Assembly (NCBI GenBank): GCA_023248955.1
Contig: JAHFDP010000038.1
Coordinates: 1-39,366 of the forward strand
Reading direction: 5' to 3'
Origin: Deltaproteobacteria bacterium
GTDB taxonomy: Bacteria; Myxococcota; Myxococcia; Myxococcales; JAHFDP01
Length of the DNA: 39,366 bases
Shown in pieces: positions 8,883-21,725 of this stretch (the stretch's first letter is position 1; every line of letters starts with the position of its first letter). The notes below the pieces were generated by a model that did no database searches, was not told the origin of the DNA, and saw only the letters and a program-made list of their open reading frames with translations. Made by a program: the position numbers and the translations under genes.

Positions 8883-8890
8883 TTCGGATC

Positions 8891-8967
8891 GCCTATGCGG
8901 CGGGCGAGGCGGATCGCGACGGGCGGGCGCGACCCGCCTCGCCCGCCGCGCAGGCGAAAAGGTTTTT
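8891..8967 (+). terminator. Strong hairpin with T-run after the hydrolase gene
   Basis: A perfect 16-bp stem (GCGGCGGGCGAGGCGG, 8897-8912, with its complement at 8934-8949) is extended inside by TCGCG/CGCGA and outside by GCCT/AGGC. It is followed by GAAAAGGTTTTTC. The tail from about 8946 to 8979 (CAGGCGAAAAGGTTTTTC, then GCTCACGCC) closely matches the outer end of the structured element at 21511-21540. It therefore works as a terminator and also belongs to the same repeat family. Confidence 0.65.
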
Positions 8968-9042
8968 CCTGCTCACGCCAAAGTGCCCAAATACTGAAAG
9001 TTCACTTCTCATCACCCCCTCTATTGAGTATGCTCCCGCTCC

Positions 9043-20502: not shown

Positions 20503-20855
20503 AAAAAAAGCCTTTGCCTGGGCGGCGGCCGGAGCCCGACGGCTTGACGGATGGGCCTTTGCGGCCGCGGTGACCGGATGCGTGGAGGAGGATCGGATTC
20601 GGGTGGTAGCAAGTCACCGCGGCCCCAAAGGCCCATCCGTCTGCCGTCGGAGGATTGATTAGGGTAGGTCGGGAGAGACGTGCTGGGGTGCGAGTTTCAG
20701 TGCAGTTTGGAATCGGCCGATCGCCCGCGACGCCGCCAAACGTAGCGCCATCGTTCCGCCCTGGCCGACGGGATTTTTTGAGAGGATCGATCAGGTTTGG
20801 AGTCACGGCGCGGAACGACGGCTGGTTTGGCGGCGTCGCGGATTCGTGAGGTGGA
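20503..20855 (-). ncRNA. Structured element, left copy (candidate ncRNA)
   Basis: A 353-bp non-coding element, the inverted partner of 21180-21529. Read on the minus strand it has hairpin 2, then a 75-bp linker, then hairpin 1, then an outer end of seven T. Hairpin 1 pairs 20536-20574 with 20613-20650 (about 36 bp, one mismatch, one small internal loop, 38-nt loop). Hairpin 2 pairs 20726-20741 with 20825-20840 (16 bp perfect), with an inner stem 20751-20759/20810-20818. The two copies differ in their stems mainly by changes that keep pairing, while loops and linker are conserved. The minus-strand assignment rests on the T-run and is inference; a DNA-level fold-back element is the alternative. 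Confidence 0.55.
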
Positions 20856-21179
20856 GCTCTCGTGGTTGTGAGGGATCTGACATTTTATCAAGATTCGTGA
20901 TCTTGATAATTCGTCAAGTAAGATTTCACCGCTATCGATTGCAAAACAGTTTCAGCCCGGCACGCCAGTCGTCATGGCCGGGCTTGACCCGGCCATCCAC
21001 GAGGACTTCGATGCACGTGGATGGCCGGCTCTTCGGCCGGCCATGACGACTGGTGTGCCGGACTGAACGGTTACGATCTCGACGACTGGTGTGCGGGCCT
21101 GAACGGTTACGACATTTCGTCAAGTAGCGTTTCATCGCTATCGATTGCCCAAACAGCGTTCCATCAGCTCTGCGAACTT
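20856..21179. repeat. Spacer between the two structured copies: direct repeats and palindromes
   Basis: This contains a palindrome ATCAAGAT-TCGTG-ATCTTGAT (20887-20907). An imperfect ~40-bp direct repeat (20911-20949 and 21117-21156, shared core CGCTATCGATTGC) flanks the nested palindrome. A ~30-bp direct repeat near 21049-21080 and 21083-21112 shares CTGAACGGTTACGA. The 20856-20950 part is AT-richer than its surroundings and could hold outward promoters for both copies. There is no coding frame. The direct repeats bracketing the palindrome suggest insertion or duplication. Confidence 0.6.
20957..21061. repeat. Nested palindromic repeat ('MAGLDPAIH'-type)
   Basis: The outer arms, 20957-20981 and 21037-21061, match at 24 of 25 positions. 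Inside them CCGGCCATCCACG (20990-21002) pairs with CGTGGATGGCCGG (about 21015-21027). The sequence translates to fragments like AGLDPAIH, a hallmark of a palindromic intergenic repeat widespread in proteobacteria, especially alphaproteobacteria. A reduced version lies at 33767-33795. Confidence 0.7.
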
Positions 21180-21529
21180 TCCACCCCACGAATCCGCGAC
21201 GCCGCCAAACCAGCCGTCGGAGGCCGCCGTGACTCCAAATCTGATCGATCCTCTCTAGAAACCACGTCGGCCAGGGGCCTCCGATGGCGCTACGCTTGGC
21301 GGCGTCGCGGGCGATCGGCCGATTCCAAACTGCACTGAAACTCGCACCCCAGCACGTCTCTCCCGACCTACCCTAATCAATCCTCCGACGGCAGACGGGC
21401 GTGCCTTTGCGGCCGCGGTGACTTGCTACCACCCGAATCCGAACCTCCACCACGCATCCGGTCACCGCGGCCGCAAAGGCACGTCCGTCAAGCCGTCGGG
21501 CTCCGGCCGCCGCCCAGGCAAAAGTTTTT
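21180..21529 (+). ncRNA. Structured element, right copy (candidate ncRNA)
   Basis: A 350-bp inverted copy of 20503-20855. Hairpin 2 pairs 21195-21210 with 21294-21309, with inner stem TCGGAGGCC (21217-21225) and GGCCTCCGA (21276-21284). The linker 21310-21384 is the exact complement of the left copy's. Hairpin 1 pairs 21385-21422 with 21461-21499. The right end has CAGGCAAAAGTTTTTC. On the plus strand hairpin 1 keeps a G-T (G-U) pair where the left copy has A-T. The outward T-runs on both copies suggest divergent transcripts from the spacer. Alternatives are a fold-back mobile element or a recombination site. Confidence 0.55.
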
Positions 21530-21725
21530 CAGCTCACGCCAGTCCCCCACCGTAAGGTGGACTGCGCATGCGCGCACCATCCCGTTCACGCTGTAGACGC
21601 CCCGGCGCCGCCTCCCTCCAACCTTCCCCCTCCACTTGTCGTAATATATCTAATATCGAACATTCCTCGGCGCGGCACATGCCTTGAATTGGTGCTAGTC
21701 GCTTTTCATCCGCAGGGGAGGCTTC
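21530..21725 (+). promoter_or_regulatory. Upstream region of the first GH26-like gene
   Basis: This has no open frame of note. An AT-rich patch (about 21634-21660, with TAATATATCTAATATCG) stands out in GC-rich surroundings and probably holds the promoter of the gene at 21726, though no clear -35/-10 pair at standard spacing is visible. The left edge repeats the GCTCACGCC tail shared with 8970-8979. A good ribosome-binding site, GGGGAGG, ends at 21720. Confidence 0.4.

What the first reader, a model, noticed from the sequence alone, without database searches (positions are those of the whole stretch)
20503..21529. Inverted pair of a ~350-bp structured element with compensatory stem changes
Two copies (20503-20855 minus, 21180-21529 plus) share an identical 75-bp linker and nearly identical loops. 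Where they differ in stems, both sides change together. In hairpin 2 the inner stem TCGTTCCGC/GCGGAACGA of one copy is TCGGAGGCC/GGCCTCCGA in the other, five consecutive pairs swapped with pairing kept. In hairpin 1, GGATGGGCC/GGCCCATCC versus GGGCGTGCC/GGCACGTCC shows two double changes and one A-T to G-T change. Conserved loops with covarying stems are the signature of a selected fold. Both copies end outward in a hairpin plus T-run, as expected of two divergent ncRNAs. I know of no named family like this. A fold-back mobile element with gene conversion is the main alternative.
Basis: partly seen in the sequence, partly recalled or inferred. Interest (0 to 1): 0.9.

Follow-up and report, generated by a model that had tools for sequence, protein, structure and literature searches.

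The report
Mobile element with structured RNA arms
The two mirrored ~350-bp copies are the arms of one repeated mobile DNA element of this bacterium; the hairpins in the arms evolve as if selected as a single strand reading outward, most likely an RNA, and sister elements elsewhere in the genome carry toxin-antitoxin genes between their arms.

Summary
In detail: window 20506-20855(-) and 21180-21529(+) are 323/350 identical, share a 103-bp identical stretch over the linker, and differ in the stems by paired changes. It is not a lone pair of ncRNA genes. The genome holds 11 full and about 11 partial arms, six times as inverted pairs. The window composite and one on contig C92 are 92.4% identical and collinear over 1035 bp at unrelated loci, so the pair moved as a unit. 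Spacers hold a CGTC-REP doublet or, elsewhere, toxin-antitoxin genes (HicA plus HTH antitoxin; a decayed HTH antitoxin). Two further hairpin families share the same outer end. Covariation is real: 8/37 pairs in HP1, a 5-pair block in HP2, 8/36 in family 2. Non-Watson-Crick departures are G.U rather than A.C when read outward (31 v 4 positions in three families, p=3e-6), and unpaired sites show no such bias. That favours selection on an outward-polarity single strand, probably RNA. No relative was found in 145 same-order genomes, Rfam, phages or plasmids. The mobilising enzyme and transcription are unproven. New variant of a known kind.

The parts
20503..20855 (-). left arm (type A: HP2 inner stem TCGTTCCGC/GCGGAACGA), reads outward on the - strand
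20536..20650 (-). hairpin 1 (HP1) of left arm, 29-bp main stem plus 8-bp basal stem, 38-nt conserved loop
20651..20724 (-). linker of left arm, identical to that of the right arm, 77-92% identical to other composites
20725..20841 (-). hairpin 2 (HP2) of left arm
20878..20916 (-). AT-rich palindrome next to arm A (TTGACGAATTATCAAGATCACGAATCTTGATAAAATGTCA read outward), promoter/operator-like, kept beside A arms whatever the spacer
20905..21148 (.). central spacer: 38-bp direct repeat (20905-20942, 21111-21148) flanking a nested CGTC-REP doublet
20970..21053 (+). [quoted passage not shown]
   Evidence: PMC3733652
21180..21532 (+). right arm (type B: HP2 inner stem TCGGAGGCC/GGCCTCCGA), reads outward on the + strand
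21194..21310 (+). HP2 of right arm
21311..21384 (+). linker of right arm
21385..21499 (+). HP1 of right arm
21500..21550 (+). outer end of right arm; read inward ACTGGCGTGAGCTGAAAAACTTTTGCCTGGGCGGCGGCC, the end shared with family 2 (ACTTTGGCGTGAG...ACTTTT.GCCTGCGCGGCGGGC)
8888..8990 (.). related minimal form: the two outer ends fused into one long hairpin with T-run and CTCACGCCAAAGTG end

Best explanation
The finding is one ~1.03-kb non-autonomous mobile element of a genome-specific family. Two structured arms lie inverted around an AT-rich centre that can hold cargo. SHOWN: the whole composite was copied between unrelated loci. The arms carry hairpins with covarying stems and conserved loops. 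The departures from Watson-Crick pairing fit constraint on the strand that reads from the centre outward. Other composites carry toxin-antitoxin genes in the same place. INFERRED: divergent transcription from the central palindrome makes two ~300-400-nt structured RNAs, one per arm, whose fold and loops are recognised by a protein, either of the element's own mobilisation machinery or of the host. A transposase or recombinase supplied in trans, not found, recognises the outer ends and moves the unit, REPIN/MITE fashion. Recombination between arms makes them mosaic. The toxin-antitoxin cargo would favour retention.
For: 11 full and ~11 partial arms in the own genome, six inverted pairs. Window against C92 composite collinear over 1035 bp at 92.4%, nested REP doublet at the same site, flanks unrelated. 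Covariation: HP1 8 double-changed pairs against 0-2 when slid, 0/500 shuffles; HP2 5 consecutive pairs, against 0-2 when slid; family 2, 8 pairs against 0-2 when slid, 2/500 shuffles. Strand asymmetry: 73 G.U against 4 A.C cells, 22 against 4 positions; family 3 adds 9 against 0, combined p 3e-6, still 5e-5 against p=0.56. No matching bias at unpaired sites, C>T 0.20 per C and G>A 0.16 per G. Cargo: HicA (PF07927, 8e-13) plus HTH antitoxin on C116; HTH antitoxin on C89; RelE-like fragment plus HTH antitoxin next to a family-2 arm on C21. Arms hold 1-nt indels between copies, so they are not coding.
Against: No transcript data. MFE of the inward strand is lower than of the outward strand in family 1 (mean 19 kcal/mol) and about equal in family 2. 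Only one weak sigma-70-like site was found, and B-type arms lack the TTGATAAAAT motif. No Y1 (HUH) transposase gene was found, and the one IS21 (C86) lies on a contig with no matching ends. No target-site duplication could be recognised by inspection of the outer flanks. Positions in one stem are not fully independent. All data come from one genome with many contig breaks at these repeats.
Confidence: 0.62

Rival explanations
1. Purely DNA-level mobile element: fold-back/REPIN-like ends recognised as single-stranded DNA or cruciform by a transposase. Stem changes are kept paired by selection on DNA or by hairpin-templated correction; no functional RNA.
For: Mobility as a unit. Block-wise stem replacement (five pairs in HP2; a long block in the C57 HP1). 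Arm-to-arm homogenisation of the linker. [quoted passage not shown]
Against: A double-stranded or cruciform process is strand-symmetric, yet departures are G.U v A.C 31:4 when both arms are read outward. One ssDNA strand holds one outward and one inward arm. No Y1 transposase gene in the assembly.
Confidence: 0.25
2. Two stand-alone divergent ncRNA genes with a cellular function, duplicated in the genome but not a mobile element.
For: Covariation, conserved loops and outward G.U asymmetry.
Against: Six inverted pairs between unrelated genes, truncated and fused forms, shared outer ends with two other hairpin families, nested cargo, absence in 145 same-order genomes.
Confidence: 0.06
3. Bidirectional transcription terminators / 3'-end elements: the repeats spread because their ends terminate transcription of flanking genes.
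For: At about nine family-1 ends that face the 3' end of a gene the stop codon lies 36-44 nt before the GCCTGGG core, i.e. 0-8 nt from the element. Fused minimal forms are plain hairpins with a T-run (window 8888-8990; C39).
Against: Many ends face gene starts, as in the window. The large covarying hairpins, loops and cargo are not needed for termination. The pattern scan finds no terminator in the window element.
Confidence: 0.07

Closest known systems
REPINs (REP doublets forming hairpins; Bertels and Rainey 2011, PMC3116915)
   Same: Inverted doublet moves as the unit; extragenic; predicted hairpins; compensatory stem changes; solo copies as remnants.
   Different: Arms of ~350-380 bp with two hairpins and a linker against ~20-25-bp REPs; cargo genes; no Y1/RAYT transposase gene found in the genome; outward-strand G.U asymmetry.
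MITEs, some of which give rise to small RNAs (review PMC10969869)
   Same: Short non-autonomous elements with inverted ends, intergenic, strong secondary structure, can form sRNAs or terminators.
   Different: No autonomous parent or target-site duplication recognised; ends are long, modular and covarying; toxin-antitoxin cargo.
CGTC REPs (PMC3733652)
   Same: One doublet is nested in the window element and in its C92 sister; that paper found no dedicated transposase for them either.
   Different: A separate, far smaller repeat; here only a passenger of the spacer.
IS110 bridge RNA (PMC11208160, seen in search results only; details from own knowledge)
   Same: Structured RNA from a non-coding end of a mobile element.
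   Different: No recombinase gene in the element; the variable linker segment matches nothing within 1.5 kb of the insertions.

Membership tests
REPIN | Two conserved short palindromes as inverted doublet that is the mobile unit | tested here: inconclusive
   Inverted doublet mobile as a unit, but the palindromes are long two-hairpin arms, not REPs
REPIN | Associated RAYT (Y1 HUH) transposase in the genome | tested here: not met
   PF01797: no match in the genome; assembly gaps remain
REPIN | GTAG/CGTC-type tag at the foot of the palindrome | not tested
   Not examined systematically; the nested REP doublet has CGTC
MITE | Terminal inverted repeats shared by dispersed copies | tested here: met
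   Shared outer ends
MITE | Target-site duplication | tested here: inconclusive
   None recognised by inspection of the outer flanks; ends are mosaic
MITE | Autonomous parent with the same ends | tested here: not met
   End pattern found only at arms and one solo end; family-2 end found at family-2/3 arms and one coding site (C94); contig gaps could hide a parent
Structured ncRNA | Covariation supporting the fold | tested here: met
   R-scape itself not available
Structured ncRNA | Single-strand polarity (G.U kept, A.C not) | tested here: met
Structured ncRNA | Transcription | not testable with these tools
   No RNA data
Rfam families | Score above gathering threshold | tested here: not met
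   Only a tRNA in the window; far sub-threshold miRNA-hairpin matches

The most novel reading that the evidence does not exclude
A new class of bacterial cargo-carrying mobile element whose two ends each encode a large structured RNA, transcribed outward from a central divergent promoter. The RNAs, not the DNA ends, are the conserved recognition parts used for mobilisation or retention, and toxin-antitoxin genes are shuttled between interchangeable RNA arms of at least three hairpin families.
Probability: 0.2. Interest if true: 0.85.

Novelty: new variant of a known kind. Interest (0 to 1): 0.58.

Why it matters
Mobile elements whose arms are constrained as RNA of one polarity, and which ferry toxin-antitoxin modules between interchangeable hairpin arms, would link REPIN/MITE biology with RNA-bearing transposons. 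The G.U against A.C polarity test is also a simple way to tell RNA constraint from DNA palindromes in other repeat families.

Tried and rejected
Loop pattern in genome contigs: one hit, inside a coding region of another lineage, judged chance. Viral contigs with three loop patterns: none. Phages and plasmids: none. Relatives: short GC-rich matches only; HP1 model in 145 same-order genomes: own genome only; family 2 in the same 145: one short chance-like match outside the own genome. Protein-coding arms rejected (1-nt indels). HUH Y1 transposase: none. IS21 as mobiliser: one copy on a contig without matching ends. Variable linker 8-mer as a target-matching guide: no match within 1.5 kb. Folding energy as a polarity test: inward strand is as stable or more stable because its linker is G-rich, so not decisive. 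Paper searches found no description of these elements.

Full report
OBSERVATION. The two copies are real: 350-nt arms, 92% complementary, 324 nt apart. They are identical at 323/350 positions, with one 103-nt identical run spanning the linker. Each arm holds hairpin 2 (HP2), a linker and hairpin 1 (HP1), the last two enclosed by a further closing stem. The fold is far below shuffles, z -9.5 as RNA and -7.8 as DNA.

A REPEATED, MOBILE UNIT. The window's genome (3.83 Mb, 116 contigs) has 11 full-length and about 11 partial arms. Six times they form inverted pairs, on C84 (the window), C92, C25, C54, C89 and C116, with spacers of 324, 322, 254, 119, 745 and 881 nt. The window composite and the C92 composite, the latter in the opposite orientation, align collinearly over 1035 bp at 92.4%. 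The alignment includes a CGTC-REP doublet nested at the same place and ends at the outer ends, where the neighbouring sequences differ. So the pair moved or was copied as one unit. Arms come in two HP2 types, A and B, and the inner stems differ within four fully readable pairs and in C116. HP2 is 97-98% identical within a type and about 85% between types. The linker is the most variable part between composites (77-92%) but identical within the window pair, which is what local arm-to-arm homogenisation predicts.

CARGO. The C116 spacer encodes HicA (PF07927, E 8e-13) and an HTH antitoxin. The C89 spacer encodes an HTH antitoxin with what looks like a decayed RelE reading frame beside it (by eye; no Pfam match). 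A family-2 arm on C21 is followed by a RelE-like fragment and an HTH antitoxin up to the contig end. The window copy has no such cargo.

A SUPERFAMILY. A distant covariance-model hit on C64 led to a second family: inverted pairs of single 36-bp hairpins with a conserved ~60-nt loop and an AT-rich centre. A third hairpin family lies on C37, C45, C66 and others. Families 1 and 2 share the outer end, read inward ACTTTT-GCCTGsGCGGCGGsC, and the window's right end also has the ACTGGCGTGAG motif of family 2. Most family-1 ends carry instead CGCGCTGGCGCGCCCAGCTTCCTTAGAAACTTTT. Fused minimal forms occur, one in the window itself at 8888-8990.

COVARIATION AND POLARITY. HP1: 98.8% of cells paired, 8 of 37 pairs with double changes, against 0-2 when the partner is slid. 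HP2: a block of five double-changed pairs, against 0-2 when slid. Family 2, counted on the inward strand: 8 of 36 against 0-2. These changes could be kept by selection on RNA, by selection on DNA, or by palindrome correction. A strand test separates them: a G.T mismatch on one strand is A.C on the other, so a strand-symmetric process gives both equally. Read outward, there are 73 G.U and 4 A.C cells, at 22 and 4 positions. Three hairpins of a third family and the right arm of C71 add 9 and 0. Combined, 31 against 4 positions, p 3e-6, or 5e-5 against an expectation of 0.56. Unpaired sites show C>T at 0.20 per C and G>A at 0.16 per G, so there is no matching mutational bias. This favours selection on a single strand of outward polarity in both arms. 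Two divergent RNAs meet that condition; one long ssDNA does not, since it holds one arm in each polarity. Limits: sites are not fully independent, and minimum free energies do not favour the outward strand.

MECHANISM. Shown: repetition, unit mobility, covariation, polarity, cargo. Inferred: divergent transcription from the central palindrome (TTGATAAAAT beside A-type arms; weak support); a protein that reads the loops; mobilisation in trans. No Y1 transposase gene and no end-sharing IS were found, though contig breaks at these repeats could hide an autonomous copy. An odd, unexplained feature: at about nine family-1 ends facing the 3' end of a gene the stop codon lies only 0-8 nt from the element.

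RELATION TO KNOWN KINDS. REPINs are inverted doublets that move as a unit, with compensatory stem changes (PMC3116915), and MITEs can yield sRNAs or terminators (PMC10969869). The present element works like these but differs in arm size, cargo, absence of a detected RAYT and RNA-like polarity. Rfam has no match. Absence from 145 same-order genomes means only that no close relative was held.

Noticed in passing
window 8888-8990: Fused minimal form of the same superfamily: one ~29-bp hairpin GCCTGCGCGGCGGGCGAGGC.../...GCCTCGCCCGCCGC.TAGGC with AAAAGGTTTTT and a CTCACGCCAAAGTG end.
   Followed up: partly
window 20970-21053: CGTC-tagged REP doublet present at about 40 places in the genome; it offers a family to which the polarity test could be applied.
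   Followed up: partly
L044 2983-3440, L075 1310-1790 and other loci: Second family of inverted hairpin pairs (about 12 arms) with covarying stems and a palindromic CTTGATAAAATATCAAG-like centre.
   Followed up: yes
L107 1-330, L109 340-600, L111, L110, L112: Third hairpin family with 36-54-bp stems and an apical hairpin GCAATCG...CGATTGC.
   Followed up: partly
outer ends, loci L031-L035, L037, L041, L075: Stop codons of flanking genes lie 0-8 nt from the element end; no empty site was available to explain it.
   Followed up: partly
L039 1-335: An arm on C45 is truncated next to an open reading frame with a weak DUF6788 match that resembles the N-terminus of an IS transposase; probably a nested IS.
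   Followed up: partly
L038 405-519 (C57): HP1 with a long block of the stem replaced on both sides at once, plus a changed 3' part of the loop.
   Followed up: partly
L069 / C89:10091-10260: An alternative right end (type C) opposite an A arm: arms of different hairpin families can be combined in one composite.
   Followed up: partly
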